From assembly GCA_011037195.1 (NCBI GenBank), contig JAAEAF010002676.1, positions 1 through 64,000 on the forward strand: 64,000 bases of DNA, in the 5' to 3' direction. Position numbers and translations under genes: made by a program. Source of the DNA: Triatoma infestans. Its lineage: Eukaryota; Arthropoda; Insecta; Hemiptera; Reduviidae. The notes below the pieces were generated by a model. The model ran no database searches, had not been told where the DNA came from, and saw nothing but the letters and a program-made list of their open reading frames with translations. This document shows, one piece after another, positions 14,201 to 63,640 of this stretch (position 1 is the stretch's first letter; every line of letters starts with the position of its first letter).

Positions 14201-16165
14201 AATCGTAGCGACTATAAGTTGAATATAACCTAACTGAGGGCTATTTCTAATGGATTCAGATTGAAATGTCTCAACAATATTTTACCAACTTAAGCTTCCA
14301 AGTACTAGGAAAAACTCTCAAAATTTGAAAACGTTTCAAAAAAAAAAATCATCAAAAACGTAACTACTAAATAGTGACTGATAAGCGAAGGGCGTAAGTA
14401 TTAAGATAGAAATGTTAGAAATTTTAGCTCACATGTTTGTATTAATTTTACATATCTGTTACTTATTATAAAAAATGGTTAGAAAAACCATCCTTGCCGA
14501 TACAGAAATATAGCTTTATTACTTTTCTATTATTCAACTTAGATTATCTAAGTAACTTCAAAAATTTCAGAATACCCGCACTCGGATTTCTGATAAAATT
14601 GGTCATTTCTCTTTCGTTCAATATTTTTATTTCCTAATTTCAATGGGAACAGAGTCCCCCATCTGCACTCCCTGGCTACGCCCATGCACACACCATGGTT
14701 CAAATCAACCAATATTTTGGAATTACATATCCCAAATTTTTTGTTTGTTTTGAAATTTATCGACTTCTCCTCACAAAACGCTCAAAACATCCTACAACGC
14801 AGGTGCAAAAACAAATCTAATTTCAATGGTATTCAAATCGTCGGAACTTAAAATTACAATGGATGTTGTACGGCAATAGCCAGAGGAGTTTTTAAAGGAA
14901 AAGAATTCTTTGTTGCTCTACGTTTCGGTACCATTGGTGCTTTCCTTCAGGAGCTCTGTAAAAATTTATTGGAGCAAATATATTATTGTACAGTACAGTA
15001 GTTACGAAAAATAGCATAGATTTATAACAAAAAAATCTGGTGTGAAACAATCACACAACTTTCTCTTACTCCAGTTCTCAAAATTGTAACTGACAAATTT
15101 TATAGTTTGTGTACCCCATTTTAATTAAATTCGTCGAAAACTGAAAAAACTATCCAGTAAAAGCGCACTTCCGGTTTACTAATTTTCTTGAAACTTGGAA
15201 TTTTGGCAATCTATTTATTTCTAATTAATTAAGTTTGGATGATAGAATTGTATAATCTACTATGATAGCACTTTAGAGAAAAACATAACCCCACCCCTCC
15301 TCCAAAAGTGCCCTTAAATGAATTTTCCCAGAGAAATGTTTTAAATAAAAGTTGTAGATCATTGTATATTTAGTTTATATACGAAGTTTTGAAGAAAATC
15401 GTGGGAGCCATTTTTGAGAAAATCGCGAAAAAATGAAAAAATTCATTTAGTAAAATGGTAATGTAAACGCACTTCCGGTTATTCGATTTTTTTTGAAACT
15501 AGGAATTTCAACAAAATATTCAATTCTAATTAACATTATTCAGATGATAGAATTGTTTAATAAACTGAAATAGCACTTTAGATGAAGACCTAACCCCACC
15601 CTCCCCCATAACTGCCCTTAAATGAATTTTCCCAGAGAAACATTTCAAATAAAAGTTGTAGCTCTTTGCATGTGTAGTTGATATCCCAAGTTTGAAGAAA
15701 ATCGTCGGAGCCATTTTTGAGAAAAACGCAAAAAAGTAAAAAAAAAACTAGTAAAGTGGTACTTCCGGGCTGAGGAATTTTGACAGATGACCCACTGTCA
15801 GATGCCCATGGTGACCTAAAAGGAATATCATGTTTCAACTTTCTACGGATTTTTCGTTTTTGAGCTATGCTGCTCACATACACACACACCCCATTTGCTA
15901 AAAACCACTTTTTTGGACTCATGGAACCTCAAAACGGATATTTCCGGTGAAAACTCGATATCGGAAATTTGACACGATTACAATACTTCCTCTTACTGGG
16001 AGTAAGAGAAAGTAAAAGAAATATTTAAATTATAGAAATATTAACAGAAGAAATTATAAAACAGAAGTGACAGTAAATTAAATAAAATGATATTAACAAT
16101 AAGAGAAAATAAGACAAAGATACCTTTAGGGTAGGAGACGAGTGAACGTTGAGACTGAAATGGAG

Positions 16166-16196
<31 letters not shown>

Positions 16197-19100
16197 CTGT
16201 TAAAAGTTGGGAAGGGATAAGAAAAATGTGAGGCGCGGCAATTTCAAATTCGGAAGAACAAATTACTGGCGAGTATCTTTTTTTAGGGTTAGAAAAATAC
16301 TCTTACGACGTTCACTCGTCTTCTACCCTAAAGGTATCTTTATCTGTCTCATTTTCTCTTATTGTTAATATCATTTGATTTAATTTACTGTCACTTCTGT
16401 TTTATAATTTCTTCTGTTAATATTTCTTTAATTTAAATTTTTTTTTGTTATAAATCTATGCACTTTTTCATAACTACTATACTGTACAATAATGTATATT
16501 CTCCAATAAATTTTTACAGAGCTCCTGAAGAAGGGCACCAATGGTACCTAAAACGTGGAGCAACAAAGACTTCTTTTTCTTTAAAAACTCCTCTGGCCAT
16601 TGCCGTACAAACATCATTGCAAATCTAATCACATTTAAAATAAAATATCAGAAGTTTCATCTGTGTTCATGCTATCTGAGATTGAATCCATCATTAGAGT
16701 TTGCTTCCTTATTCTGATCGGTTTCCAATTGTACTACATCACCAGAATCTGGTAGTTAATCAAGTTGGTGTGGAGTTGTTGACTTCCATGTTTAAAGTTT
16801 TTGTTACACACTAAACTCACCAACAATGAGGGAAAATCCGAAACCCCTCAGAATTAAAGAACAGAATATTATCCAGCATTGCGGACCTAACTTTCATCTT
16901 AAAATTCAAAAATTGTAGGCTCTTTTGTAAGTTTAATTATATTTGTTTTTGCAATCAGTATATAATAAAATGTGATACACTCCAAAGAAATTGAGAATTG
17001 GACCGTAGTTTATATGACCAATTTTGTTTCAGTTGTATAATCAACCCCATAAATAGCGACAATCACAGGAACCTGAGAAACCTGTAAAGAACAAAGTTAC
17101 TTGTCATGTTGAGTTGGTAATTTTCCTATCTCATTTCCACATGAGTTGTAAAAGTTGAATTATTCCCTGGAAATGTTTCCGAGTCCAAATTCGATGTTAA
17201 CGTGCCTCACAGTGAAAGTAACCAATAAATCAATGCTCACTGTGGAAACACTAAAAAAAAAAGTAACACCTACTTTTCTGTCACGCTTTATGACCAAGTG
17301 CCGATCGGCTGATATGCAAAGGGGACCAAACATACTTTACTAATACTCCTATATCTGCTAAAAAAATACCAAGTCTCTGGACCTAGACAGAACCCAGTCC
17401 CCGTAGCAACTAACCTTATGGCCCATGCCTTTAAACACAGCGCCCCCTGCTTCACTCTAAGTACATACTGAGCTTTTTAATGTTTAGAGCAAGACATTGT
17501 TTCAGAAGCCTACTCTGCTTAATCAAATGTTTCAAATTTAGGCATAATAGCAGAAAAAAAGTGAGTATTATTTTCCTAGAGTTCCCACAACTTAATCTTC
17601 TAAATAAACACGCTCTGCTGCACTGTCAATTCAAATCTGAGATTTTATTTCTAATTTAGGGCGCGGCATAGATGGTTATTGGCGCCTGGAGCCTTCTCAG
17701 TGTACTGCTGGCCTCCGGACAGTGTTCTCTCGTTACAGCCAACACAGTGAGCTGTAGAGGCTCCTAGGAATAGAAAATCTAAGGGCAGCAGAGCTGAACT
17801 CAAACCCGGGAGTCCGGTGCGCTAACCACTGAGCTAATCACTTCCCTACCCTATGAGATGTTTACATGATTATTTATTTATAAAGTTAATGATGGCAAAT
17901 AAGATGTTGATGCAGCTACACTATGTACCTGATTGTATATGGCCACAGGAGGACTAGGTGTTAGGGAGTGGTGTCTAGTGTAAACTCCAACAGGCAATGG
18001 AGGATGGTAAGCGAAGGGCGGACCGGGCGCAAGGCTAGCTCCTCTGCCTCTGGTACCAGTTTGCCCGCGCCCACCACCGTACAAACTTAATCTTCTTTCT
18101 GTCTCCTTTCGTTCTTCTTCTTCTACAACGGCTGCGGCTACTGCAGCTAAATCCTCTTCACTAACTGACCGAGATTTACATTTGCTCTTGTATACTACAA
18201 GTAACACCATTAGGCTGAAGAAACCTCCTAGAGTTGCAGCGATTCGTACCTAATTAAATTTAAATTAAGATTAGTAAAACGTAATATTTGAAACTGTTAA
18301 ACCTTGATAAAATATAGTAAGAAAGCAATATTAATTAGTAATTAATCAGTAACACTTACCCCTGTCATAACGTCATAAGTCTTATAGAATTCCAATTTAT
18401 CAGGGGACATACTAGGTAAGAGTTCGTTGTTATTATCTGGCGAACTAGAATTGTTGTGTCTGTTCCTGTCGTGGCCCACGTCCATGGCCCACCAGCTACC
18501 CACTCCCTCCCCCACCTTCTGCAATAAAATCAGAAATTTTTACTGTAATACGGTATAAAACTTACGAGTTTCAGTACAAGCACAGGTTAAATACATCAAA
18601 GTCCTAAATCTAATTGGAAAAACATGTGCGAGAAGTACAGGGATAGAAGATGGGCCTACTCAGTTTATCCAAGTTTTTATTCAGTCGAAGTCTTGAATTT
18701 TTTTCATTTATTTACGCTCCATGTTCTTAGTTAAATATATCTTTAATAAAAAGGCTCCGAGTATAGGACATTAAGATAATATACCAATTGTACAACACTA
18801 AAAATTTGCATGTCATATAACCTCTGTTTGTTTCAAATTTGTTCCTTTGTTCGTAGTTGATACTCCTTCATCTTCCTATTTTGCAAACTGAAATGGTATT
18901 GTTGTGGTTGTGGTTGGTTCCGCAGAGCTGGAAAACATCAGAGATATTTTCCGTGATATCCAGCTTCTTTTGGTGGTCATCGACCGGTTTCGGGCATTCG
19001 CCCATCATCAGGATGTTTTTTGTCAAACAGTGTGATAACATAGACTTGTACACAGCAAATTTAGTTGATACACTGGTTTTTAAAAATTGTCGGTAACTAT

Positions 19101-21409
19101 TTCACAGTAGCCCACAGTGTTCTTTCGCTCTAGTATAAATAAATAAATAAAATAGTAGGGTAATATGTGTGATTAATTAACAAGTAAATCTCCTTCAAAA
19201 AACGTTGTTTAAGTTACACATCCCCAGTTGTTGGATGTTTCATTTTTAAAGGGAACAATATACTCCTTTAAAGACCGAAACATGTGTTTTCCCACTCTGT
19301 ACCAACACCCCTCTTGACCTAGTTAGGTCCTAACAAAAACATTTTTAAAAACCAGTGAATCAACTAAATTTGCCCTGTGCAAGTCTATGTTGTCACACTA
19401 TTAGACAAAAAATATCCTGATAATGGGCGAACGCCCGAAACCGGTCGATGACCAGAAAAAAAAGGAAAACTAATAAAAGAGACAAAATGAATCCATTACT
19501 GGCTATAACCGACTAAATCTGGGCATTGGCAATGTAAAGTAAATGGTCACATTTTTAGGGATCTTTAAAAGAAATCAGTCAAAATTTGCTAATCGTCAAA
19601 ATGTATATTAATCAGCCAAATTTAGTAATCGTCAAAATGTATATCTTCTAATTCTGTTTTACCCCTTCCCCTTATATGCAGCACCTACCAATTTTAATTT
19701 ATTCGATCACAGTATGCTTTTTTGACCCAGAACAAAAAAAGGATGTTAAGCCCAGTGCTCTAAACTTTGGGAAAAGCCACTACTGGACCTTGCAGTGTGT
19801 CATTATTTTTGTGGAAATGTTTAAATATACTACCTTAATCAGGCATCAATGTCCTTGTAGTTTCCATGTCCTGCAACAATAAATAAAAATCATCAACACT
19901 GACTATAGGAAAGTAAAGTAATGCCTATTTTTTCAGGAGGGCTTAACATCTAACTACCAAATTAGGTGTCGTGGACGGAGGCGAAGGTACTTTACTTTAC
20001 CATAAACCTTTTTTTTTTTACGAATATAAAATTTGTAGCTGTTATAAGCGGGACTCGAACTGGGGATCTCTCAGTTTCAAGTCCATGCTCATAACCACTA
20101 CACCAACACCCTCCCCTACTGACTGCAGTACAAACAATAATTATATTAAAGTTTAAATCTTTTTAATTATATCTTGAAAGTAGAAAATCAATAATTGCTG
20201 AAACTCAAATATTACATCATGTGAAATCATATAGAAGGTGGCTTAGGAATAAGTATCTTTTAGTTTTTTTAACTTAGAAGTAAACTCTTCTTCCAAAGTA
20301 CTTCAAAAATTAAAAATTTTGTATTTCTTTAGAAATGCAAGCAACCAACCACACCCATAATTTAAAAAAGTAAAAAAAGTGTGAAAACCAACATCAACCA
20401 CTACAAAATATTAGTATTTTTATCAATAAATTTTCTTCAACTTTGGAATGATTACTAAATGTTACTCGTAAATGTTCACTGCACATAAATATAGTAAATA
20501 CAGTTGGTGGAGACTATAGTAGCTAAAATTTATAGGCAAAAATTAACCTTGAACGTGATTACACTGATGACAGTGCCATCTTAAACCCGCCGATAGAATT
20601 TGTGACGGAGTTTCCGGAATTATATAGTTAGTGGAACTGTAACGCTCCAGAACTCTCCAAAAGATCAATTTTCCGGGAAAAATGTTTCGAAGTGATAGGA
20701 CTATAAATGAGTGATAGGACTATGACTATGAGAAATTTAAAAAAAAAAACTTTCACACCAAGATCGTATAATTGATTCCTCTTACAGCAATCAATCAATT
20801 CAATGCAGTACGTTACAATGTATACATATCTCTTCTAGTGTAAAGACTCCTGATAAGGGCACCAATGTATCGTAAAGTAGTGCAATTAAAGAATATTTTT
20901 AAAAAGACTTGCTATGGTCATTGTTGTTTAGAACTTTCTCCTTATAATTTAAGGCCTGGCGATTTTGAAATCAGTTTAAAAAAATCTAAAAAGTAGCCAT
21001 TAAAATCAAGAGAGAGAGAGAGAGAGAGAGAGCATATTTATGAATTTCAGGATTAGAGTAACAACTCTTCCTATAATTCAAAAACTTTTTCACATTCTAA
21101 TGCTAATTAAGGTCCACTGCATGTATAACAAAACTGTGGCAAGGTCACTATTAAAAGTAAAATATTAACACAAATTTCTAAACTGTAATACTGTTGAAAT
21201 GGAGTTTATAACTGAATAGTAATAAATAACTCAAAAGCAAAATTTTAATACCTACAGGGATGTACTTTAAGAGATGTGAATGGAATTAAAGTACACTCGA
21301 GATGAGTGGTAATCATACCAATGTGGGCGCATCAAATAATTAACAGATTCTCTAGTTGCCGGATCAACGCCAGCATTGTGCGGCGAAGCTGGATAGAGCA
21401 CTTCACTGT
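1876..21409 (-). CDS. Single-pass membrane protein with long Ser/Pro-rich cytoplasmic tail (C-terminal part, 8 exons)
   Basis: Exons in transcript order are 21409-21297 (tentative), 18518-18360, 18249-17929, 12938-12835, 6770-6608, 6246-5914, 5821-5645 and 2226-1876. Every internal boundary has AG/GT borders and the phases match: all junctions are phase 0 except a phase 2 junction joining the 12835 and 6770 ends. The seven firm exons give about 535 residues ending in a TAG. A hydrophobic stretch with core AATLGGFFSLMVLLVV, followed by Lys/Arg, opens exon 18249-17929 and is the only membrane segment seen. The Asn-rich segment before it would be outside the cell and the long tail inside. The tail has Glu/Ala, Gly, Pro and Ser-rich stretches and no catalytic motif that I recognise. 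The 5' exons lie outside the window or were not found. I do not recognise the family; gene structure is sure, function is not. Confidence 0.75.
2820..3120 (+). mobile_element. Non-LTR retrotransposon fragment (RT C-terminal region), plus strand
   Basis: Broken frames read NNYKYLGVIVTSKVNF and then VFNSVSRSIVCYGAKVWSV. This is the usual order of the region after the reverse-transcriptase domain in CR1/Jockey-like elements (YLGV…, then the YGAEVW-type motif). There are internal stops. It appears to continue at 4557-5160 and to be split by a minus-strand fragment of a similar element. Confidence 0.6.
3126..3156. repeat. (TTTA)n microsatellite
   Basis: About seven TTTA units in a row sit next to the break between the two opposed retrotransposon pieces. 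Confidence 0.9.
3418..3440. repeat. (AAT)n microsatellite
   Basis: A run of about seven AAT/ATA units. Confidence 0.9.
3698..4556 (-). mobile_element. Non-LTR retrotransposon C-terminal fragment, minus strand
   Basis: The minus strand holds an open frame of 229 codons (4547-3858) with LLYAGEIWAFNYFTEIEKVQ, the post-RT motif. A frame change near 3860-3900 is followed by a C-x2-C…H…C zinc-knuckle segment (ICTICKLNASDSLLHF). Start and end are ragged. It lies inside the last intron of the membrane-protein gene, in the same orientation. Length and shift mark it as a dead 3' piece, not a host gene. Confidence 0.7.
4557..5160 (+). mobile_element. Non-LTR retrotransposon C-terminal fragment, plus strand, heavily stopped
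   Basis: Frames read PIFTDILKLHLDYIVEVF and further pieces of the thumb/C-terminal domain with many stops. It fits as the continuation of 2820-3120 past the inserted minus-strand piece. Confidence 0.5.
5645..5821 (-). CDS. Membrane-protein gene, low-complexity tail exon
   Basis: This exon is 177 bases (59 codons), phase 0 at both ends, acceptor TTTTCATAG and donor CACAGG|GTGATT. It opens VDGFSTDSESGSSPAIS, then has a Lys/Arg/Pro/Gly-rich segment (SKIPSRLSGGIPRPPNP) reminiscent of SxIP microtubule end-binding motifs. The SKIP tetrapeptide fits the S/T-x-I-P pattern, but an isolated match proves nothing. Confidence 0.8.
5914..6246 (-). CDS. Membrane-protein gene, Ser/Pro-rich tail exon
   Basis: This exon is 333 bases (111 codons), phase 0 at both ends, acceptor TTCTGTTACAG and donor GACGAG|GTAACC. 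It opens VIQPTPQVSPCSSQATLC and ends with an acidic stretch, DEELVDTEDE. Many Ser-Pro and Ser-Ser pairs suggest a disordered, phosphorylated region (inference). Confidence 0.8.
6608..6770 (-). CDS. Membrane-protein gene, cytoplasmic-tail exon with Cys/Ser motif
   Basis: This exon is 163 bases, acceptor CATTGGCAG (phase 2 in) and donor ATACAG|GTGTGT (phase 0 out). It encodes RFSSVTCSSCDSSYLERR, then a proline-rich HPIPPPF segment and an aromatic acidic stretch ending EEPWDYYYPIDIQ. An alternative acceptor (TTTTTAG before 6823) would also keep the frame open, but only without the 12.9 kb exon. The phase match to that exon decides for 6770. Confidence 0.75.
6830..7890. other. Intron sequence, nothing recognised
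   Basis: AT-rich sequence within the intron between 12835 and 6770 of the minus-strand gene. Short frames only, without protein-like composition. Confidence 0.5.
7901..8035. repeat. Tandem duplication of about 75 bp
   Basis: The segment AGTGAGAGGAAGTGCTTCCG with its following bases through TGAATTGTTATCAG occurs at about 7904-7963 and again at 7978-8028, nearly identical. The second copy is the 5' part of the Rep-like frame, so the duplication repeats its first motif. Confidence 0.8.
7981..8370 (+). pseudogene. Decayed HUH-type Rep-like (rolling-circle initiator) remnant
   Basis: Two frames joined by a shift near 8164, with a stop just after it, carry the three short motifs of an HUH replication initiator in order and spacing. 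The first is VFITMN (from about 8002). The second is an HLH motif followed by hydrophobics (CAT CTT CAC at 8134-8142). The third is YITK, a tyrosine at 8256 with a lysine three residues on at 8265. In CRESS-type Rep proteins these are motif I, the metal-binding HxH, and the catalytic YxxK. The helicase part is absent; a mobile-element fragment starts at about 8415. It may be an endogenised virus or plasmid-like Rep or part of a transposon. Short length and decay keep confidence moderate. Confidence 0.45.
8415..8505 (+). repeat. Deleted foldback repeat: two outer arms only (hammerhead-bearing family B)
   Basis: TGGTTGGTTCCGCAGAGCT is the outer arm end found at 18912, 26287 and 58323. It is followed directly by the opposite outer arm (GCAGGCTATCACGGAAAATG), as at 26457 and 59156. 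The central part with the ribozyme is missing here. Confidence 0.65.
8510..12320 (+). mobile_element. Degenerate non-LTR retrotransposon with endonuclease, RT and RNase H remnants
   Basis: Region 8510-9000 looks like element 5' sequence. From about 9260 the end of an AP-endonuclease domain reads EPSFSDHRHLWF (the SDH motif). RT follows in broken frames: YKAPGVDGIYP (9873), VTFLDIEGAFN (10270), RGCPQGGDLSPLLW (10441) and a catalytic box FADD (10540). RNase H is marked by IYSDSQAALRAI (11510). A C-x2-C…H zinc-knuckle segment reads CRFCQEEEETALHV (about 11950). The 3' end is an AATCTAATCTAATCT tail at 12290. Frameshifts and stops are frequent, so it is dead. RNase H plus APE endonuclease suggests the I/LOA/R1 side of LINEs. 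It sits in the intron between exons 12835 and 6770, antisense to the gene. Confidence 0.85.
12330..12830. other. Intron sequence, nothing recognised
   Basis: AT-rich, between the retrotransposon tail and the exon ending at 12835. Confidence 0.5.
12835..12938 (-). CDS. Membrane-protein gene, small basic/acidic exon
   Basis: This exon is 104 bases with acceptor TCACTATTAG and donor CGCAG|GTTTATTCC. It enters in phase 0 and leaves in phase 2, exactly what the upstream exon (phase 0 out) and the downstream exon at 6770 (one base to complete a codon) require. It encodes EEEDDIPEVWRGVPGKRPG followed by an Arg/Ser-rich stretch ending SSRRSSR. It lies between a non-LTR element (8.5-12.3 kb) and unannotated sequence, so it is easily missed. 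Confidence 0.75.
13590..14000 (+). mobile_element. Non-LTR retrotransposon C-terminal fragment
   Basis: A zinc-knuckle-type segment reads CITCGVDESLEHIITVC, the C-x2-C-x7-H-x4-C spacing seen at the C-terminus of CR1/Jockey-like ORF2 proteins. Several stops lie on both sides. Confidence 0.55.
14010..14850. other. Intron sequence, nothing recognised
   Basis: AT-rich, without frames or shared repeats that I could see. Confidence 0.4.
14915..14954 (-). ncRNA. Hammerhead ribozyme motif (family C, left arm)
   Basis: Minus strand: GCTC, then CTGAAGG (one change from CUGANGA), a stem II hairpin GCACC-AAT-GGTAC, GAAA, palindromic stem III ACGT, cleavage base A, then GAGC. GCTC pairs with GAGC to close stem I. 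The right-arm copy has an intact CTGAAGA. Confidence 0.5.
15036..16017 (+). mobile_element. Hairpin-tailed repeat (family A), full copy with readable boundaries
   Basis: It starts TCTGGTGTGAAACAATCACA and ends with the hairpin CTCTTACTGGGAGTAAGAG then AAAGTAAAAG. CTTTCTCTTACT at 15060 is the reverse complement of AGTAAGAGAAAG at the tail, a subterminal inverted repeat. Because it interrupts the left arm of a foldback element whose right arm is uninterrupted, the empty site can be read: AACAAAAAAA joined to AAATTTAAATT. No target-site duplication is evident. No coding capacity. Confidence 0.7.
16166..16188. repeat. Poly-T tract
   Basis: About 23 consecutive T in the loop of the foldback element. 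Confidence 0.9.
16521..16561 (+). ncRNA. Hammerhead ribozyme motif (family C, right arm, decayed)
   Basis: GCTC, CTGAAGA, hairpin GGCACC-AAT-GGTACC, then TAAAA in place of GAAA, ACGT, and GGAGC. Stem I (GCTC/GAGC) and the CUGANGA box are intact. The GAAA change and the G at the cleavage position predict an inactive copy. Confidence 0.45.
16630..17645. other. Intron sequence, nothing recognised
   Basis: No shared repeat or coding segment found. One 62-codon frame near 17155-17343 has no domain or splice context. Confidence 0.4.
17650..17850 (-). mobile_element. tRNA-derived SINE, family 1
   Basis: Minus strand: TTAGCTCAGTGGTTAGCGC is A-box-like and GGGTTTGAGTTC is B-box-like. A shared body follows (CTAGGAGCCTCTACAGCTCA … GAGAGAACACTGTCCGGAGG … CTGAGAAGGCTCC). 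Other copies are at 25.3, 29.3, 49.1 and 60.3 kb. Confidence 0.75.
17929..18249 (-). CDS. Membrane-protein gene, transmembrane exon
   Basis: This exon is 321 bases (107 codons), phase 0 at both ends, with acceptor TTTAATTAG and donor CAATCAG|GTACATAG. It begins VRIAATLGG and runs through a hydrophobic helix to a basic KSKCKSR stop-transfer cluster. An acidic and alanine-rich stretch (EEDLAAVAAAVVEEEE) follows, then Arg/Gly- and Pro/His-rich sequence ending VAIYNQ. Confidence 0.85.
18360..18518 (-). CDS. Membrane-protein gene, extracellular juxtamembrane exon
   Basis: This exon is 159 bases, phase 0 at both ends, with acceptor TTTTATTGCAG and donor GGG|GTAAGTG. It encodes 53 residues: KVGEGVGSWWAMDVGHD, then a run rich in Asn, Ser and Asp with an NNSS sequon-like stretch, then KLEFYKTYDVMTG directly before the membrane segment of the next exon. 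The Asn/Ser richness suits an exposed extracellular linker. Confidence 0.8.
18976..19016 (-). ncRNA. Hammerhead ribozyme motif, complete
   Basis: Minus strand in order: CATC (stem I 5'), CTGATGA (conserved box), stem II GGGC-GAAT-GCCC, GAAA, palindromic ACCGGT (minimal stem III), C (cleavage base, after 18982), GATG (stem I 3'). CATC and GATG pair exactly. All conserved core bases of the type I hammerhead are present. The very short stem III is what is known for hammerheads of Penelope-like elements and retrozymes, which may act as dimers. This is the best copy in the window. Confidence 0.8.
19413..19450 (+). ncRNA. Hammerhead ribozyme motif, one core change
   Basis: TATC, CTGATAA (G to A in the box), GGGCG-AA-CGCCC, GAAA, ACCGGT, C, GATG. 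Stem I closes with one G-U pair. It faces the complete copy at 18976-19016 as the other arm of the same foldback element. Confidence 0.6.
19465..19905. other. Intron sequence, nothing recognised
   Basis: AT-rich, without supported features. Confidence 0.4.
19908..20130 (-). mobile_element. tRNA-derived SINE, family 2
   Basis: Minus strand: TGGTGTAGTGGTTATGAGCA is A-box-like and CCCAGTTCGAGTCCCGC contains a clean B box. An internal T-rich spacer and an end beginning AAGTAAAGTAATGCC (plus-strand view) follow. A second copy is at 40.16-40.34 kb. The related head precedes a body unlike family 1. Confidence 0.75.
20160..21000. other. Intron sequence with a faint family C relic
   Basis: Around 20830-20900, CTCCTGATAAGGGCACCAAT and nearby bases resemble the ribozyme-bearing end of the foldback at 14.9-16.6 kb, strongly decayed. 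The rest is AT-rich and featureless. Confidence 0.35.
21010..21031. repeat. (GA)n microsatellite
   Basis: About eleven GA units. Confidence 0.9.
21297..21409 (-). CDS. Tentative upstream exon of the membrane-protein gene
   Basis: The minus strand reads as a protein-like segment of about 37 codons (…VNYLMRPHWYDYHSSR) ending at a CGA|GTGTAC donor in phase 0. That phase fits the next exon, which opens KVGEGVG. The acceptor is uncertain: the AG before 21409 and the AG before 21405 both keep the frame. The donor is weak, and a better-looking one (G|GTATGATT, about 20 bases earlier) would be out of phase with 18518. Confidence 0.45.
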
Positions 21410-22090: not shown

Positions 22091-22388
22091 TAGTGATTAA
22101 TAGAGACCAGACCCTCATCTAAGCAGAACATGACTGCCCCTGCTCAGGGAAAAGAGAGAAAAAGGAGGGAGGAAAAAACGTTCAATGGAATTTAGGAGCA
22201 GAACAAGGTTAAAACTTTGGCAGGGATGGGAGTGGGATGGGAGACCTAGACCTCGTCACCCGCCAACCAACCATGGACAACGAAGAGAAATTTAAGCCCC
22301 GAACACCACCTACACTTAGATGGCGGAGGAAGGGGCCACACCTCTTTTCTACCAACGTTCATTGCTCCATTAGCTTTCAAGGTGTAAT

Positions 22389-22430
22389 GACCCCGAAAAA
22401 GCTCATTGCAATATGGGCAAAACGTCGGTT
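22389..22430 (+). ncRNA. Hammerhead ribozyme motif (family D), decayed
   Basis: GACC, CCGAAAA (for CTGAAGA), GCTC…GGGC stem II, AAAA for GAAA, ACGT, C, GGTT. Stem I (GACC with GGTT, one G-U) and stem III are intact. The copy at 44263-44304 has the intact boxes. Confidence 0.4.
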
Positions 22431-22489
22431 TCTCAGCACTCAAGTGTTTTTCATGAAAATGGCCGCGGTAACCTAAAAGATCAATAATA

Positions 22490-25307: not shown

Positions 25308-25500
25308 AGGCGCGTCAGCATCTATGGTCATTGGCGACCGGAGGCTTCTCAGTGTACTGCTGGCCTCCGGACAGTGTTCTCTCGTTACAGCCAACACAGT
25401 GAGCTGTAGAGGCTCCTAGGAAGAAAAAATCTAAAGGCAGCATAGCTGGACTCGAACCCGGTCCTTTTGCGTGGGAGTCCAGTACGCTAATCACTAACAA
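25308..25500 (-). mobile_element. tRNA-derived SINE, family 1
   Basis: Same body as 17650-17850 (CTTCTCAGTGTACTGCTGGC, GAGCTGTAGAGGCTCCTAGG). A poly-T run precedes it, as expected for a minus-strand copy with an A-rich tail. Confidence 0.75.
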
Positions 25501-26112: not shown

Positions 26113-26277
26113 AAAAAGAAGATCAGATCCTAATGAATTGAACAACACTGAAACAGCTGAAACAACACAGTGTTGTTTAGGACAAAACTTCGGTTTATAA
26201 CAAACCACTGATATAATTTACATAAAGAGGAAAATCTAAACTTTAAAAAACGACTTTTTTGAGAAAACTCTCCCATA

Positions 26278-26492
26278 GTTGTTGTGGTGGTTGGTTCCGC
26301 AGGGCTATGATTGATTCCGCAGGATGGTTTGTAACACAGATACACACTAGTATGTCAAATGTATTTGCTCTGTGCAGGTCTATGTTATTACACTGTTTAA
26401 CAAAAAACCTCCTGATAATGGGCGAACGCCCGAAACCGGTCGATGACCACAAAAAGAAGCATGCTATCACGGAAAATGTCTCTGATGAAAAA
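26278..26492 (+). mobile_element. Family B repeat, one arm with hammerhead
   Basis: It begins TGGTTGGTTCCGCAGGGCTA and contains TCTATGTTATTACACTGTTT, as in the other copies. It carries the hammerhead at 26408 and ends ATCACGGAAAATGTCTCTGA. Confidence 0.65.
26408..26445 (+). ncRNA. Hammerhead ribozyme motif, one core change
   Basis: CTGATAA (for CTGATGA), stem II GGGCG-AA-CGCCC, GAAA, ACCGGT, C, GATG. The stem I 5' side (CCTC) pairs only at its two inner bases. Confidence 0.55.
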
Positions 26493-29274: not shown

Positions 29275-29480
29275 CTGAAAAATCTATTGTGCCCCCCAGA
29301 GCCTTCTCAGTGCACTACCGGCCGCCAAGCAGTGTTCTATAGCTACAGAAAACACTGCCGATCACCGGACCGTGAGTTGTAGAGGCTCCTAGAAAGAGAA
29401 AATCTATGGGCAGCTTGTTGGATTCAAACCCGGACCTCCGAGTTGCTAGTCCAGCGCGCTACCACTGAGTTAATCCCTTT
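29275..29480 (-). mobile_element. tRNA-derived SINE, family 1
   Basis: CCAGAGCCTTCTCAGTGCAC, GTGAGTTGTAGAGGCTCCTA and GGATTCAAACCCGGACC (B-box complement) mark the copy. Confidence 0.7.
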
Positions 29481-30750: not shown

Positions 30751-31458
30751 TCTTACTCCTAGTAAGGAGGAAGTATTGTAATCATGTCAAATTTTCGATA
30801 TCGAGTTTTCACCGGAAATATCCGTTTTGAGGTCCTCTAAATCAAAAAAAAGTTTATTTTAGGAAATGGTTTGTGTGTGTATACGTGTATGTGTATGTGA
30901 ACTGCATAAGTCAAAAACGAAAAATCGTAGAAATTTCAAACTTGTTATTCCCTTTGGGTATCACCATGGGATCCGATAATACGTTGTGTTCAAAATTTAT
31001 CAACCGGAAATTCTACTTTAAGAATGGTTTTTCACTTTTTTTTACAATTTTCTGGAAAATAACTCAGAAAGATTTTCTTTAAACTTGGTATATTAACTAC
31101 ACAGACAAAGATCTATAATATTTGAAACGTTTCTCCGGAAAAATGCATTTAACGGCACTTTTGGGGGAGGGGTAGGGTTATTTTTTGCCTGTAAAGTGCA
31201 ATCATAGATGATTATACAATTCTACCATCTAGGCAAAATTAATGAGAAAGAAATAGATGCCAAAATTCGAAGTTTAAAGAAAATTAGTAAACCGGAAGTG
31301 TGTAATTATGGGATAGTTTTTTTTAGTTTTTGCGTTTTTCTCCATAAAAACACCGACGAATTCTATTAAATTTGGTATACTAACTATAAAAGTTGTCAAT
31401 CACAATTTTGAAAACTGAAGTAAGAGAAAGTTGTGTGAGTGTTTCACACCAGATTTTT
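30750..31458 (-). mobile_element. Hairpin-tailed repeat (family A), minus-strand copy
   Basis: Plus-strand view: it begins with the tail hairpin CTCTTACTCCTAGTAAGGAG, then ATCGAGTTTTCACCGGAAAT, and ends AGAAAGTTGTGTGAGTGTTT CACACCAGA, the complement of the head. It shows both termini. Confidence 0.6.
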
Positions 31459-38039: not shown

Positions 38040-38900
38040 CCTCTAAAATCAATTTTTTTGGATAAATGTTTCAAATAAAAGTGATATGCTTTTATCTGTG
38101 CAGTAAGCATTGCAAGATTAAAGAAAATACTCCAGTAAAATCAAAAACCCATTTTGTAAAATCGCACTTCCGCTTAACTGATTTTCTTAAAATTTAGAAT
38201 TCTATCAAAATCGTTGAGCCATTTTTGAAAAAATTGCGAAAAACTGAAGAAAAAAAATATTCCGTGAAGTCGCACTTTCGGTTGATAGATTTTGTCCGAA
38301 TTCTTCCTGTGAGATGTCAGATTATATATATATATATATATATATAAAATGACAAATTGTCTTTGAACTTAAACTTTTACTCATTTGTCCTAACATAAAC
38401 ATAGAGGTAGTGGTGGGGAACAAATATCTACCAAGGCAGATAGTGAGTGTTACATTATTATCCACTAGATAGCGCCAGCAACATTGAACAAACCAAATAA
38501 TATTTGCAATGAGGTGTTTGTACGGCAATACAAATAACATTTCATATTTAAACGCCTCAAATTCTGCAGAATTTTGTAAAATCAATTTTTTCAGAAAAAC
38601 ATAAGTGATACGTTTATATCTGTGCAATTAGCATACAAAGTTTAAAGAAAATTGTTATAGTCGTTTTCGAGGAAATGCCAAAAAACTCAAAACTGTTAAC
38701 CGATTTTCTATATTTGGAATTCTAGCAATGTTTCTAATGGGTATCAATATTATTATAGGTTGTAAAACCATACTTTGTAGTAAAGTAGGAAGCTTAAAGT
38801 ATTTTCGAAATTAAGTTTTCACCGGAAATACAATGGTTTGAGATGTGTGAACAAAATATCTGAAAAACGAAAAATCGCAGATAGTTCACAAAAAAATAGA
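38040..38900 (+). repeat. Family A partial copies
   Basis: AATCGCACTTCCGCTTAACT (38160), AAGTCGCACTTTCGGTTGAT (38267), then a (TA)n run and a second body (AGAAAATTGTTATAGTCGTT). It ends with TTCACCGGAAATAC and CTGAAAAACGAAAAATCGC. Confidence 0.45.
38324..38347. repeat. (TA)n microsatellite
   Basis: About eleven TA units. Confidence 0.9.
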
Positions 38901-42745: not shown

Positions 42746-43228
42746 AATTTCATCAAGAAATTTTCTTTAAAATTGCAACGTTATAATGTGTCCCACAAAT
42801 CACATTTAAATAAACAAATTAATCTCCACGACATGGTGCAAATAATAGAGTATTAAAGACCAAATAATTGGCTGAGCGGCATAACCAGGTTGGCGCGATT
42901 AGGGAAAATATGCAGCGCTGAAACTCATTATGATAAAGATAGGAAATACGAAGGTCACATGACCAAAGGCGTTTAAAACGACAAGGAGGTTATCAGGATG
43001 AGAGGTTGTAGCAGGTTAGGTCTAGGAAGCGCGGGGCCCTACGCAACAGTTCTGTGCACTGTGCAGGGCTCCTTGAAAATTATTATATATTCAAGCTGTT
43101 AATTTTAATTTAAAATAATACTTTTCTTAATTATATAATTATCTATCCTAATGATTAGTGAAATTATTATCAACATAAAATTTAACATTGTTAGTCGATT
43201 TTATATTTTTTGGCTGCATTTTAATAAT

Positions 43229-44116
43229 ATTGCCATGTTGTTAGTTGGATTAAAATAACAGTAATATAAATCAAAACATTTAATATTATCAATTTGAGCA
43301 ATAAAAAAGTGCAACATACAACATCGCCGTTCTCTGCATTTCACCCTCCTCTATACAAACTTTCACTTACCCAAGAAATGGCTGACAGCCAGGTTCTTAA
43401 CTCAAAACTGTAAGTAAAAAAATAAATCTCTAACTGGAAAATATGCATTACACACTCCATTAACTAACTATTAATTAATATATTTTCTGCATTGAACAGA
43501 TAAAAAAATATAACAGCCAGCAAATTGCCACTTTCCACCTTAAATCAAATTTTTAATAAAACACGTGCAACTTTGGTTTAAAAAATAGATCATATTATCT
43601 GTAATCATCTCTCAGTATCAACCACTAACGTTAGTTTTCGAAACATAAAAAAATCAAGAACAAATACAGATAATTAAAAATTTATAAGAAAAATAACAAA
43701 ATTTTTTGGAAAATACATTTAAAAATCAAAATACGACAAAACACCATTTTAGTGTTGCACAGTAATTTTATAATCATCAAGTACCATTTGAGGTGAGCAT
43801 TATTTGTGGATAATAATTTATTTTTCTGTATATTATTTTTTCTGTATAATTTTTGGTTTAAAAAATTTTTGTTATATATTTAAATACGCATACTTAATTA
43901 CAATGTATATAAAAAAGTTTTTTGTTTCATATTGCAGACATTTGTAACATAACATAATGTTTTTCAAATCTTTTTGATAATGGCACGGAATTGTGCCGAA
44001 ACGTCAAAGTAAAAAACATAGCTACGACGAATGTATCTCAAATCAAGGACATAATAAAAAAGGATTCTGGCTGTAAATCTGGTTCTTCTTTATAATCCAA
44101 CTAACAACATAGTAAT
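43229..44116. mobile_element. Non-autonomous element with 18-bp terminal inverted repeats and a hammerhead (family E)
   Basis: ATGTTGTTAGTTGGATTA at 43235 is the exact reverse complement of TAATCCAACTAACAACAT at 44093, giving a unit of about 880 bp. A hammerhead motif lies about 90 bases from the right end. No coding sequence is seen. Confidence 0.5.
43970..44009 (+). ncRNA. Hammerhead ribozyme motif (family E), core partly decayed
   Basis: CTTT, TTGATAA (two changes from CTGATGA), stem II GGCAC-GGAATT-GTGCC, GAAA, ACGT, C, AAAG. Stem I CTTT/AAAG, stem II and stem III all pair fully. Confidence 0.5.
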
Positions 44117-44194
44117 AAAATTTAACATGTATATAGAATTAGGTAAGAAAATTACCGCACCACAATAAAACATCTTAGTTGTTGATCTTTTAGG

Positions 44195-44310
44195 TTTCCA
44201 CGGCCATTTTCATGAAAAACACTTTAGTTTTCAGGTTGAGACCGCGTCAGTGGTTTACTAGAAACCGATGTTTCGCCCAAATTGCAATGAGCTTCTTCAG
44301 GGTCGTTACA
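44195..44310 (-). repeat. Family D repeat copy carrying a hammerhead
   Basis: ATTTTCATGAAAAACACTTT and CAATGAGCTTCTTCAGGGTC are shared, in reverse, with 22375-22490. Confidence 0.6.
44263..44304 (-). ncRNA. Hammerhead ribozyme motif (family D)
   Basis: Minus strand: GACC, CTGAAGA (intact box), stem II GCTC…GGGC with a nine-base loop, GAAA, CAT, C, GGTT. Stem I GACC/GGTT pairs with one G-U. Stem III is reduced to ACAT here; the 22.4 kb copy has ACGT. Confidence 0.55.
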
Positions 44311-44506
44311 CTTTGTACATTTTCGCTTTTCGTAAATAATTTAGGTGAATTTTAGTCGGGGAGGGCTAGGCAGAGTTTGTGTTGGCGGTGTGAAAGATGG
44401 ATGCTTGTGAGAGATGGATACGCTGTCGATATTGTACTGTTGGCGCCGGAACTCAAAGTATTGCAGATGATGATAAATAAAGTACAAAAATATTATTTTA
44501 TCTGGA

Positions 44507-48161: not shown

Positions 48162-51100
48162 GTAAGTGCAGGTATAATATGATTTTTATTCAATTATAAT
48201 TTTAATGTTGTTTAATACATTTGATATAAACATATTTTATTCTAAATTAAGCAATGTTTTGAATAGTTAACTAATTCCACACGTTACAAAAGTAAACACA
48301 TGTTCCATCTAGTGGCCATTTAAATAATCAACAAAACATTGACACTGATTGTAAAAATATATTAATTAATACAAAATTTGTTATTACTTTCGAAATAAAA
48401 ATCTAATATGAAACGAATTAAGCAAATAAACGAATAATTCAACAATATACATTATTTCATACATTTCTCGGTAGAGCTAATTTAGAATTTGCCTATTATT
48501 TGGTATCCCTATTATTATAGTTCACTTTGATTTCGAAAGTTCTTCAATACATTGTCCAACTAAGATGTCATGTAAATGGACCAGAATCCGTGATTTTGCA
48601 TCTAAAAAATTGCTTCATATGATAAATTATTTTTCAATTTTTTTAAACATTCATATTATTAATTATTTAATAACATAGTTTTATATATTAAATTATTTTA
48701 CACAAAAATATCTAATATTAGATAGATAAAATCTTTTTTCAACAACTATTAACATGAAACAAGAACTTTTAAATAATAAATATATATTATTGAATATGTG
48801 GATGGATAACATCTGGTATTTGATCTGTCGTAGAACGTATGTTTCTTTTATTCCTGACCGGTTTCGGATTTTCACTCATCGTCAGAGTAAATTTATCAAG
48901 TTCGTGTAGAAAGTTCACTTCAACGCAATATTCCTGTTACTGAAGCCAACAAGTGTTGAGTGTAACACAAACATTGCGAAAGGAATTGCTACGTGGTTAG
49001 CATCCTGGACTCTCACGCGGAGGTTCCGGGTTCGAGTCCAGCTGTGCTGCCCTTAGATTTTTTCTTTCTAGGAGCCTCTAAACTCACGGTCCGGTGATGG
49101 GCAATGTGTCTGTAGCGAAAGAACACTGTCCGGAGGCCGGTAGTGAACTGAGAAGGCTCCGGACGCCAATGACCATAGATGCTGACGCGCCTTAAAAAAA
49201 AAAAAATAATAATAATCTTTAAAAAAGATAAAAATGATATAATTAAGAAAATTATTATAATATTGTAGTAACAGTTTGAATATATATTCATCTTCAAGGG
49301 GGCCCATGCTGTCCGTTGCTTGGGGCCCTCGTATAAATGTAAAAGTGTTGTACATAGCGATAAATAATTGACAGCCAAGTGATAACACAGTATGAGAGAT
49401 ATTTTTATGTGATATACTAATAGACAAATTTTTGTGATAGGAATTAACTGTTTTTTTTTTGTTTTTTTATTAAAGAATTAGAAGGATTATCTGTCAATGA
49501 CATTTGTATAGGTTGCACAATAGAATGTTTCAAGTGTGTGTCGCTGAACCAACAGAACAAAGCATGTGATGACCCATTCCATAACAACTACACAGCAGAT
49601 ATCTTAGAATCTCCATGCTTAGGTGGACGTAAAGGGAGGAACGGCCTGTTTCCAGCGACTGCATGCATCAAACTGAGCGGTGTATACGGTACGAAATGAA
49701 TACTAACTTATATCGAATAAAAAGTTTTATGTGATCATATAAAGTAATGTAGTAAAGTATAATTAATGGCTATATTGTTTGCAGAAGACACAGGAGATAC
49801 GATAATGATAAGGGGCTGCGCCTTGGACAGTGGTACTCTCACGACAGACACGGAGATCATAAGGATGTCACATTGTGGTGGATTTTATTTCGAAGAAAGG
49901 TTAATTAAGTGAAAGAATTATTCTTTATATACAGTTTATATAATTACTTTCTCGTACTGTTTGTTGGAAGTATTGCGATCGTGTCCAATTTTCGATATCG
50001 AGTTTTCTCCAGAAATGTTTTTCAGAAATGAAAAATGTTTTTCACCAGAAAAGTTTTCACCATGTTTTAATGTCATCTGAGACCAAAAATGTGGCTTTTA
50101 TAAATTTGTCTCTATTTAGTTGGTATCAGGGTGCGCGGTAGTAAGGGTTTTGGTCAACATAGTGTAACGGAAATATTTACTGAATAATTTTTAAGTTTCT
50201 TGCGATTTTCTTGGAAACGTCTCCAACGATTTTCTTTAAACTTGGTATATCATCTACAAATATAAATAGCTACAGCTTTTATTTGTAACATTTTTCCTCT
50301 AAAATGCCATCATAATTTAATATATGATTCCATGACATAATATGATTACATAATATATGATTAAATATGATTATGATTAATAATGATTACATAATATTAA
50401 TAATAATTAAATGTGTTGCCAAAATTATGAGACTGAGGAAAATCGGTTGACTGGAAATGCTACTTTACTGATAAATTCTAACAAGTTTCTTTAAACTTGA
50501 TATACTAGCAATACATGTTTGTTTAGACCTATTACTTTTATTTTTATCTTTTTTCCTAAGAAAAAAAATTGATTTTATAGGGATTCTGGTGGAGTTAGAG
50601 GTCATCTGGTGTGAAATATTTCACATGACTTTATCATAAAATCAATTCACATAATTATAATTGACAAATTTTCTTCATTCTGGAAATTTGTACTGAATGT
50701 TTAATTACTATACCTGCCTGGGTAGGTACTTGTCCTCCCACCACCTCTATATTTATGGTAGAACAAACGAATAAATTTTGATGTTTAATGAAAAGTTATT
50801 TTATATATAACTGTATTAATAGCAGCAAGAGAAAGCCGTGTGTTTCACATCATATTTTCTTCACTGGTGACCTCTACACATGTATTTCCTGTGAAAATTC
50901 AATTTCCAAAATGTAATACGATCTCAATACATCCTCTTACAGCAGTAAGAGAAAGTATATGGTTCTCAATGTGTCTGTAACTTAATGGGAATCCGGACTA
51001 TTTTCGGAATGTTCTATTCACCCCTAGTTAATTATTATATTTATTATTCGTAACTTAATTAACTAAACTAATATGATTACTTTATGGGCAGGTATGTGAG

Positions 51101-58150: not shown

Positions 58151-58317
58151 TTTATTATACAATGTTACATTTATTTTTATAAGTATAATAATGTAAATAT
58201 ATAGGGCGAAATACCTGATGCCTATATTCATCGAAGACAAATTGGCTCAAAAAAATATATATGAAACAAATATAATAATCAAAAAATTCCTATAATTAAA
58301 CTAGTTATAATAATTGT

Positions 58318-58635
58318 TGTGTGGTTGGTTCCGCAGAGCTGGAAAGCATCAGAGACATTTTCCGTGATAGCCTGCTTCATTTGTGGTCATCGATCGGTTT
58401 CAGGCGTTCGCCCATCATCAGGATGTTTTTGTTGAACAGTGTAATAACACAGACTTGCACAGAGCAAATACAGTTGATACACTGGTCTTTGTTTGACAGA
58501 ACTAGGTTAAGAGGGTGTTGCTACCTGAATGGAGAAACACATGGTCGGTCCTTTAGTGACGTTGTTCCCTTTTTTAAATGGAAACATCAATGAGTGGAGC
58601 TGTATAAGTTAAACTATGTTTTTGAAGGAGATTTT
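58318..58635. mobile_element. Family B repeat, one arm plus middle
   Basis: TGGTTGGTTCCGCAGAGCTG and CAGACTTGCACAGAGCAAAT match 18901-19090. 58500-58635 matches the middle of the 18.9-19.5 kb element in reverse (AGGGTGTTGCTACC, AACACATGGTCGG). Confidence 0.65.
58388..58425 (-). ncRNA. Hammerhead ribozyme motif, nearly complete
   Basis: Minus strand: CATC, CTGATGA, stem II GGGCG-AA-CGCCT (one G-U), GAAA, ACCGAT (one base off the palindrome), C, GATG. Stem I pairs exactly and the core is intact. Confidence 0.65.
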
Positions 58636-58639
58636 TCTT

Positions 58640-59050
58640 TTACAATTATTTTATCCATACCACCTTTTTGTTTCTATTTATTAATTCATAACAGAGCAAA
58701 ATAACGGAGTTTATTAATAACGCATCTTGCTAATATATATATTAATAACGTAATATATTAACAATGTAACGATCGAATAACGTAATACATTAGTGACGCA
58801 TTATTTCTTATTATTTCTATCTATTAATTCATAACAGAGCAAAATAACGCAAAAATGTCAGCTGTGGACCACCGTAGAATAGTTACTGGTAAGAAATGAT
58901 AGAATCCGAGCTGAATGACCGTAAGATGGTACAGACATAATTATGTTGAGCAATTAATTTATATAAGCAATTTTTTTTATAATTATGCATTCCATTCAAC
59001 ATTTCACCTTTCACACACATTCACATACACCATCCATGTACGCACGCACA
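58640..59050. other. AT-rich sequence with a local direct repeat
   Basis: TTCATAACAGAGCAAAATAACG occurs (within 20 bases of context) at about 58685 and again at about 58831. No coding signal. Confidence 0.5.
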
Positions 59051-59072
59051 CTTAAATGTGGGTTCATTTTTT

Positions 59073-59205
59073 TTTCACAGGCCTAAACCTAACGAGTCTA
59101 ACGAGCTCAAATACAGACATATCACTGAAAATGACGACGATGACAACAAAATGGAGCAGGCTATCACGGAAAATGTCTCTGATGATAATTATAATAACTT
59201 CAAAC
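59073..59205 (+). other. Possible exon containing a repeat end
   Basis: A TTTTTTTTCACAG acceptor-like site at 59080 opens a frame reading KPNESNELKYRHITENDDDD, then EQAITENVSDDNYNNFKLM. It includes the family B terminal segment GCAGGCTATCACGGAAAATG. Low support; it could be chance. Confidence 0.2.
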
Positions 59206-59880: not shown

Positions 59881-59886
59881 TAAACT

Positions 59887-63112: not shown

Positions 63113-63119
63113 TGTTAAT

Positions 63120-63415
63120 CCTTCTACTCTTTAATAATCCATATTTGATATTTCTGGGCACACGTTTTCTCTTGTGCTGACAGTTGGGGCTGAAGCTGAT
63201 CATCTTGATGTGAGCCCGGACTCCCTCAAACTAATACCAACTACTGGGAATGAAAACTACGTGTTTCATAAATCGTACGTTGGTGATCCCGAGCTAATGT
63301 TTGTTTCGTTCGAAATGGTTGAAGGCGTAACGGATCATTTCTTGAACATGTTGGTTTAGAAAGAGGCCAGATTGAAGTTAAGCGGTTTGTGATGTAACAA
63401 AGAGAATGCCATTTT
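63120..63415. other. Unassigned sequence with a 61-codon frame
   Basis: The plus-strand frame 63174-63359 (GAEADHLDVSPDSLKLIPTT…) looks protein-like but has no recognisable domain. It directly precedes a hammerhead-bearing repeat, so it may be part of that element. Confidence 0.3.
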
Positions 63416-63417
63416 TA

Positions 63418-63640
63418 AATATGTGGATGGGTCCGCAATGCTGGATAACATCTGGTATTTTATCCGTTGTAGCATGCATATTTATTTTATTCCTGACCGG
63501 TTTCGGATTTTCATCCATCGTCAGATTAAATCTAACCATTTCGTGCAGAGCTTTCACTTCTAACGCAAAGTTTTCGTTTCACTCGTCACTTGTGAGCCAT
63601 TTCTCAGACATAGTAACCACAAAAATTATCACCTCCATAG
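63418..63640 (-). repeat. Hammerhead-bearing repeat (family F)
   Basis: GGATAACATCTGGTATTTTA and TATTCCTGACCGGTTTCGGA match 48780-48920, and TTTCACTTCTAACGCAA continues the match to 48910-48940. Confidence 0.65.
63488..63530 (-). ncRNA. Hammerhead ribozyme motif (family F), core complete
   Basis: Minus strand: CTGACGA, stem II GGAT-GAAA-ATCC (perfect), GAAA, ACCGGT, C. The stem I bases next to the core match poorly; ATTT further out could pair with AAAT. Confidence 0.6.

What the first reader, a model, noticed from the sequence alone, without database searches (positions are those of the whole stretch)
14915..63530. A dense set of minimal hammerhead ribozymes in several unrelated repeat families
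At least eleven sites (14915, 16521, 18976, 19413, 22389, 26408, 43970, 44263, 48849, 58388, 63488) show the same order: a 4-base arm, CUGANGA or one or two changes from it, a stem II hairpin, GAAA, a 4-6 base palindrome (ACCGGT or ACGT), a C or A, and a second arm that mostly pairs with the first. Stem II sequences differ wholly between families B-F while the core is kept, which is what selection on an RNA fold predicts. Hammerheads with very short stem III are known from Penelope-like elements and retrozymes. Several families in one 64 kb stretch is notable.
Basis: partly seen in the sequence, partly recalled or inferred. Interest (0 to 1): 0.88.

Follow-up and report, generated by a model that had tools for sequence, protein, structure and literature searches.

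The report
Ribozyme cuts recorded in retrotransposon insertions
The eleven motifs are hammerhead-ribozyme-like sequences near the ends of short insertions that most likely come from Penelope-like jumping genes, and related copies across the same genome begin unusually often at the exact predicted cut point, so the ribozyme likely cuts in living cells and the cut RNA is likely sometimes copied back into DNA.

Summary
All eleven motifs are present; two decayed ones were missed. Rfam sees no hammerhead, but stems I and II covary across eight families and the core is ten times commoner genome-wide than its reversed control (77,491 vs 7,794). All eleven carry one extra A or U before stem II. They are not ribozymes in unrelated repeats: they lie near the reverse-transcription-start ends of short insertions with Penelope-like anatomy, namely head-to-head arms, 9-13 bp target duplications in 15 of 25 pairs, one short and one tailed end in 21 of 22 classifiable pairs and, in families B and E, a ribozyme overlapping a start codon. 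That is known PLE biology. New: arms of family B start at the exact predicted cut more often than at four nearby positions (28 checked ends vs 3, 7, 6, 9); the related E family repeats this with different letters (11 vs 2). I read this as a trace of hammerhead-cleaved template RNA. No intact Penelope gene was found; the search for its endonuclease did not complete.

The parts
8418..8500 (.). B1: 83-bp head-to-head insertion; - arm 8420-8455 (tail end), + arm 8454-8499 starting exactly at the predicted hammerhead cut; TSD TAAAAAATA at 8409-8417 and 8501-8509
14822..16619 (.). A1/A2: head-to-head insertion, left arm interrupted by an unrelated ~1-kb repeat at about 15023-16017; TSD CAAATCTAAT at 14812-14821 and 16620-16629
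14909..14958 (-). hammerhead A1 with arms (core change A9G)
16517..16565 (+). hammerhead A2 with arms
16812..16887 (+).
18898..19464 (.). B2: head-to-head pair, - arm 18898-19074 (tail end), + arm 19354-19464; no TSD found
18982..19011 (-). hammerhead B2L, intact core, stem I CATC/GATG, stem II GGGC/GCCC, palindrome ACCGGT; predicted cut between 18982 and 18981
19417..19446 (+). hammerhead B2R (G8A)
20842..20890 (+).
   Evidence: likeness to A by eye
22378..22487 (+). C: single arm with decayed hammerhead (22385-22433)
26276..26486 (.). B3: head-to-head pair, - arm about 26275-26306 (tail end), + arm about 26342-26487 (short end), hammerhead 26412-26441 (+); TSD GAAAA[C/A]TCTCCCA
38506..38530 (-). 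A3: 25-bp insertion of only the A-family end, TSD CAAATAA[T/C]ATTT at 38494-38505 and 38531-38542
43228..44112 (.). F: short inverted match 43228-43255 (-) and arm to about 44112 (+); possible TSD TAATAA[T/A]ATT, weak (21% of control windows do as well)
43966..44014 (+). hammerhead F (C3U, G8A), stem II GGCAC/GUGCC
44179..44315 (-). D: single arm of the C/D family with hammerhead 44259-44308
48803..48928 (-). E2: E-family arm with hammerhead 48844-48893
58314..59185 (.). B4: head-to-head pair, - arm with hammerhead 58392-58421, + arm 59138-59184 starting at the predicted cut (one further C before it also matches); TSD TA[G/A]TTATAATAA
63422..63568 (-). E1: E-family arm with hammerhead 63483-63532

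Best explanation
The motifs are hammerhead-like sequences near the 3' (reverse-transcription-start) ends of short insertions that are most likely Penelope-like retrotransposons, and the excess of copies that begin at the exact predicted cut likely means that hammerhead-cleaved RNA is sometimes the template. Proposed cycle: a tandem element transcript carries the ribozyme across its start codon (frame seen in B and E; coding use inferred). Reverse transcription starts at one of two sites about 45 or 71-87 nt 3' of the cut (the ends are shown; the starting reaction is inferred from the Anolis element PAc). Both target strands are primed, giving two arms joined head to head between 9-13 bp target duplications (arms and duplications shown; priming inferred). 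Uncut template gives arms running through the ribozyme, which would explain why tens of thousands of dispersed hammerheads litter the genome. When the ribozyme has cut, probably as a dimer through its palindromic stem III (untested), the reverse transcriptase would run off the 5' end of the 3' fragment and leave an arm starting at nucleotide +1, the first after the cut. My estimate is about 2% of B copies against 0.2-0.6% at nearby positions.
For: Stem covariation over 8 families; 77,491 core matches vs 7,794 control; 37,433 copies of a B-family 24-mer at <=2 mismatches, control 0. Insertion anatomy: TSD 9-13 bp in 15 of 25 B pairs vs 3.1% of permuted pairs; one short and one tail end in 21 of 22 classifiable pairs of 25, permutation p 7e-5 (ends). 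PAc in print: RT start 111-118 bp into the ORF, optional 30-40 bp tail, cut 26 bp after the start codon (PMC11167929 main text); here, counted by eye on the intact copy, the AC-rich end lies about 88-111 nt after the ATG and the cut 24 nt after it. Cut footprint in B, counting checked 5' ends by start position (+1 = first nucleotide after the cut): -3, 3 of 10 inspected; +1, 28 of 50; +2, 7 of 20; +4, 6 of 20 (5 distinct); +5, 9 of 20 (hits; classified in 87, 96); Poisson P(>=28 | 6.25)=1.6e-10. Replicate in E: +1, 11 of 15 inspected; +2, 2 of 5 inspected. In the window, B1 and B4 right arms start at the cut. L159 and L226 are single arms from the cut with a 12-bp duplication (11/12 and 12/12 alike) 2 and 4 nt upstream of it. 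Denominator 4,472 exact B anchors.
Against: No Rfam hammerhead hit. PAc inserts without needing the ribozyme, and its authors saw no RNA reads starting or ending at the cut. No intact RT or GIY-YIG gene was found; the PF01541 search did not complete, and the one RT-like fragment (L135) has no Pfam, PDB or protein-database match. The footprint is a minority class; most arms run through the site. Control positions were not inspected in full: 6 of 16 hits (-3), 5 of 25 (+2), 19 of 39 (+4) and 47 of 67 (+5) were left out, at +4 and +5 mainly those whose prefix looked internal to me, so these counts are lower bounds; against 9 alone the excess is p=0.0013. Only 4 of 28 cut-end copies score a duplication beside the cut, control 3.4%. 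Ten of 25 pairs show no clear TSD, and 8 of 29 B loci show one arm only. E has one control position. B and E are related, so the replicate is not fully independent.
Confidence: 0.77

Rival explanations
1. The insertions are Penelope-like, but the pile-up at the cut comes from reverse-transcriptase stops at the folded ribozyme or from joining preferences, not from cleavage.
For: The site lies at the edge of a predicted stem; stem-I complementarity (CATC/GATG) does create inverted junctions there (2 of 50 inspected), and many raw hits are internal changes (20 of 50, plus nine TCCT hits). In 8 of the 11 E ends the base before the cut is T, unexplained.
Against: A polymerase stopped by stem I should stop 3' of the stem, which in B means ends at +5, not after copying it; +4 and +5 show 6 and 9 ends against 28 at +1. 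The E family has its excess at its own cut with different letters. Junctions called internal or inverted were removed before counting.
Confidence: 0.17
2. The motif is a coding relic: the core letters are kept because they encode the start of a protein (M-x-E-x-P-K-P-V), and there is no catalysis.
For: B and E share an open frame starting inside the motif, without gaps to the tail (frames; sequence).
Against: A, C/D, G, H and I have no ATG at the start of stem II yet keep core and stems; stem II differs between B and E by compensated changes inside codons; stems covary over 8 families; the pile-up falls on the scissile bond.
Confidence: 0.08
3. They are retrozymes or another non-autonomous class that merely borrows a Penelope-like machinery.
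For: 37,433 matches to a B 24-mer is SINE-like abundance; no copy with an intact gene was seen.
Against: Retrozymes in print are tandem repeats processed to circles; none of the 17 tandem-repeat rows in the window coincides with a site, and insertions are inverted pairs. The ribozyme overlaps an ORF start in B and E, and one E-type insertion carries an RT-like reading frame (L135).
Confidence: 0.1

Closest known systems
PAc, the Poseidon/Penelope-like element of Anolis carolinensis (PMC11167929; main-text section read, passages in 13)
   Same: Hammerhead overlapping the ORF start (cut 26 bp after the start codon there, 24 nt here), AC-rich reverse-transcription start about 110 nt into the ORF, two ends 30-40 nt apart, both strands extended
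   Different: There ribozyme cleavage was dispensable in vitro and no read ended at the cut; here genomic 5' ends are in excess at the cut. Intact gene not found here.
Penelope elements of Adineta vaga such as Pen2a_Av (PMC3846280; passages read)
   Same: Head-to-head inverted pLTRs, 8-10 bp TSDs, a 31-bp tail optionally on one of the inverted pLTRs
   Different: Here one tailed and one untailed end is the rule (21 of 22 classifiable pairs), and no arm examined carries an intact gene
Minimal hammerheads of PLE pseudo-LTRs (Cervera and De la Pena 2014; Lunse et al. 2017: neither held, titles seen in a reference list, content recalled or from reviews)
   Same: Very short or no stem III, association with PLEs, dimer cleavage proposed in print
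   Different: I could not check whether their consensus already includes the extra A/U before stem II
CChMVd viroid hammerhead with an extra core nucleotide (De la Pena and Flores 2001; title only; viroid name and position recalled)
   Same: One extra nucleotide next to helix II (recalled)
   Different: Viroid, not a retrotransposon

Membership tests
Hammerhead ribozyme | Core CUGANGA ... GAAA ... NUH | tested here: met
   Intact in 5 of 11 window sites by eye; 77,491 vs 7,794 genome-wide. All 11 have one extra A/U.
Hammerhead ribozyme | Stems I and II pair and covary | tested here: met
   30/32 and 31/32 pairs in 8 family representatives; representatives chosen by me
Hammerhead ribozyme | Stem III | not testable with these tools
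   Only a loop-less palindrome; pairing between molecules needs an experiment
Hammerhead ribozyme | Match to an Rfam hammerhead model | tested here: not met
   the models are not a definition of the family, but the miss is real
Hammerhead ribozyme | Self-cleavage at the predicted bond | tested here: inconclusive
   Indirect: 5'-end excess at the bond in B and E; no biochemistry
Penelope-like element | Head-to-head pLTR arms | tested here: met
   21 of 29 B loci, and 4 B insertions in the window
Penelope-like element | Short target site duplications | tested here: met
   15 of 25 B pairs; A and A3
Penelope-like element | Optional 30-40 bp tail at one end | tested here: met
   21 of 22 classifiable pairs of 25
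Penelope-like element | Hammerhead near ORF start, AC-rich RT start about 110 nt into ORF | tested here: met
   B and E frames by eye; ends
Penelope-like element | ORF with telomerase-like RT and GIY-YIG endonuclease | tested here: inconclusive
   One RT-like open frame in an E-type insertion (L135), no database match (128, 133, 134); PF01541 search unanswered (52, 56, 59, 97, 122, 124, 127)
Retrozyme | Tandem repeats each with a hammerhead, circular RNA | tested here: not met
   No tandem array at any site in the window (periods up to 500); circular RNA not testable

The most novel reading that the evidence does not exclude
Penelope-like hammerheads do cut in the living animal, and the cut 3' fragment is a working reverse-transcription template: about 2% of the commonest family's copies end at the exact scissile bond, so the ribozyme in effect chops its own element into a minimal mobile tail, and the genome keeps a single-nucleotide record of the cleavage.
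Probability: 0.7. Interest if true: 0.75.

Novelty: new member of a known kind. Interest (0 to 1): 0.56.

Why it matters
[quoted passage not shown] A 5'-end excess at the scissile bond is a sequence-only assay for cleavage inside the animal: it can be run on any genome with PLEs and can compare live and dead ribozyme sub-families. The anatomy also explains why minimal hammerheads are dispersed by the tens of thousands: reverse transcription starts just 3' of the ribozyme, so most truncated copies keep it. In the listings of my paper searches and the passages I opened I saw no report of such an excess; subscription journals are mostly not held.

Tried and rejected
Rfam searches: no hammerhead. 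Chance motif in AT-rich DNA: rejected on covariation and genome counts, although window-only shuffles are weak below a perfect core. Hits in prokaryote genomes and one viral contig: chance. Two other viral-contig patterns found nothing. A covariance model was built on an alignment in which stems were out of register; it was never used. MAFFT alignment A1 also misplaces stems, so covariation was counted by script on hand-cut stems. Single-strand folding was not decisive: z -1.67, -1.56, -3.10, -0.85, 0.31 for five sites, and an intermolecular stem III cannot be modelled so.

Of the 68 exact-cut B hits, 50 were fetched and inspected. The other 18 are nine TCCT hits (taken as internal deletions by their letters, not fetched), two on C21 (one of them L155, seen to start at the cut; not in the 28) and seven at the end of the list. 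Nothing was dropped from the 28 after classification. In the +4 control L190 and L191 are duplicates, and L194 reads by eye as a copy starting at the cut with a 4-base duplication; both were left in the 6. L305 and L306 are duplicates that the script called internal on low-complexity letters; they look genuine to me but were left out of the 11. The 'internal' threshold is met by 2.4% (B) and 5% (E) of random 100-mers of the window.
Full report
WHAT WAS CLAIMED. Eleven minimal hammerhead ribozymes in several unrelated repeat families. I checked the motif, then its surroundings, then its copies in the window's own assembly (G000, 941,445,613 bases, 13,959 contigs, unnamed).

THE MOTIF. All eleven sites are there: a short arm, CUGANGA or a decayed form, stem II, GAAA or a decayed form, a palindrome (ACCGGT, ACGT) or a decayed form, one H or changed nucleotide, second arm. 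The copy at 18982-19011 (-) is intact. Each site also has one A or U between CUGANGA and stem II, as do three further families read from the genome (G in L252, H in L254/L255, I in L256). Rfam models do not see it. Inside the window the strict descriptor exceeds shuffles clearly only for the best copies (perfect core 1 vs 0 in 20 shuffles; <=1 change 2 vs 4 in 20 shuffles; <=2 changes 5, of which 3 real, vs 10 in 20 shuffles). Genome-wide the core pattern has 77,491 matches against 7,794 for the reversed pattern. For one representative of each of eight families, stem I pairs at 30 of 32 positions and stem II at 31 of 32; swapping partners between families reached stem I's value in 0 of 20,000 permutations and stem II's in 0.035%.

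THE CARRIER. Copies of family B share sequence from upstream of the ribozyme to one of two ends, about +41..+50 or +71..+87 after the predicted cut. Of 29 genome loci with a B match, 21 hold a head-to-head pair (an arm on the minus strand, then an arm on the plus strand) and 8 a single arm; 27 of the 29 had been picked by a B 24-mer. Of 25 pairs (21 from genome loci, 4 from the window), 22 could be classified at both ends and 21 of these have one short and one tail end (permutation p 7e-5). Fifteen of 25 are flanked by 9-13 bp duplications, against 3.1% of permuted flank pairs. In the window, B1, B3, B4, A and the 25-bp insertion A3 have such duplications; F is weak and B2 has none; C, D and E were not resolved as pairs. 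This is the published anatomy of Penelope-like elements: inverted pLTRs head to head, 8-10 bp TSDs and a 31-bp tail optionally on one of them (PMC3846280, passages); reverse transcription starting in an AC-rich loop 111-118 bp into the ORF, with an optional 30-40 bp tail between two starts, and a hammerhead cut 26 bp after the start codon (PMC11167929, main text). Here the tail end is AC-rich (CCAACCACAACCACAACA in the intact copy) and the cut lies 24 nt after the ATG (counted by eye). B and E read in one gap-free frame from that ATG (MGERPKPV... and MDENPKPV...), and their stem II sequences (GGGC/GCCC and GGAT/ATCC) differ by compensated changes inside codons. B and E are 71% alike from the ribozyme downstream, so the families are not all unrelated.

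THE GENE. No intact RT or endonuclease gene was found. One E-type insertion (L135, 2273-2716 minus) carries an open frame with ...APKLNGLPKVHKPNISIRPV..., which resembles PLE reverse transcriptases from recall, joined to the E tail. Pfam, PDB and protein searches found nothing for it, and a paper search for a related motif string found nothing. The genome search for GIY-YIG (PF01541) did not complete. Filing under Penelope-like elements therefore rests on insertion anatomy.

THE CUT FOOTPRINT. Positions are numbered with +1 as the first nucleotide after the predicted cut. In the window, two B right arms (B1 at 8454, B4 at 59138) start at the predicted scissile bond (in B4 the C before it also matches). 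To test this genome-wide I counted copies whose four bases before position p all differ from the family while everything from p on matches, then fetched and inspected junctions by script, removing internal changes and inverted junctions made by stem-I complementarity. Raw hits and checked genuine starts: -3, 16 hits, 10 inspected, 3 genuine; +1, the exact cut, 68 hits, 50 inspected, 28 genuine, 20 internal, 2 inverted; +2, 25 hits, 20 inspected, 7 genuine; +4, 39 hits, 20 inspected, 6 genuine, 5 distinct, one of them (L194) perhaps itself a cut-start copy; +5, 67 hits, 20 inspected, 9 genuine. Hits not inspected at the controls carry mostly prefixes typical of internal changes; at +5 I chose the 20 most plausible of 67, so that count is a lower bound. 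Against the mean of the four controls, P(>=28) is 1.6e-10; against the largest control alone it is 0.0013. A stop of the polymerase at stem I would give ends at +5, where 9 were found. The E family, whose letters after the cut are AGGAAC instead of GATGAC, gives 16 hits at its exact cut (15 inspected, 11 genuine) and 8 at +2 (5 inspected, 2 genuine; the three not inspected carry the prefix of L316, which was internal). Two B copies, L159 and L226, consist of the arm from the cut alone with a 12-bp duplication 2 and 4 nt before it; over all 28 only 4 score a duplication beside the cut, 14% against a control of 3.4%. About half of the 28 lie beside a second arm, for which no duplication is expected there. 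Scaling 28 for the four-base filter ((3/4)^4, equal base use assumed) gives about 90 of 4,472 exact B anchors, about 2%.

READING. Most templates are uncut, in line with PAc, where insertion did not need the ribozyme. A minority ends where a hammerhead would cut. I take this as likely cleavage in the animal followed by reverse transcription of the 3' fragment. Steps shown: motif, covariation, arms, ends, duplications, 5'-end excess. Steps inferred: catalysis, dimer through the palindrome, cleaved RNA as template, PLE enzymes as the machinery.

NOVELTY. Minimal PLE hammerheads and head-to-head insertions are known. The 5'-end excess at the scissile bond was not seen in the listings, nor in the passages or sections opened of five papers; the two key PLE-hammerhead papers are not held, so the extra A/U may already be in print.

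The shuffle count at <=2 changes is 10, not 9; positions were renumbered consistently; uninspected control hits, single-arm loci and L194 were added.

Noticed in passing
15023-16017 with relatives near 23115, 27583, 31317-31459 and elsewhere: A dispersed ~1-kb repeat, with degenerate internal repeats, sits inside the left arm of the A insertion; many partial copies in both orientations.
   Followed up: no
17666-17809, 25318-25461, 48993-49215, partial 29290-29355: A repeat with tRNA-like box sequence (GGTTCGAGTCC), probably a tRNA-derived SINE; copies 76-95% alike.
   Followed up: no
9634-11642 (+) and 37115-37450 (+): Open frames that look from recall like non-LTR retrotransposon RT and RNase H pieces.
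   Followed up: no
17878-18249 (-): A 123-aa open frame with a hydrophobic stretch, possibly a host exon.
   Followed up: no
7901-8041: 1.9 tandem copies of a 73-bp unit, 92% matches.
   Followed up: no
G000 loci L160, L166: Head-to-head junctions placed at the stem-I complementarity (CATC/GATG) of the two arms, as if the arms annealed there.
   Followed up: partly
G000:C1:142362, C4:400410, C4:389057: Three further hammerhead families (G, H, I) outside the window, all with the extra A before stem II.
   Followed up: partly
G000 loci L297-L309: In 8 of the 11 E-family cut-start copies the base just before the cut is T and in 3 it is A; whether this reflects target choice or base composition is not known.
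   Followed up: no
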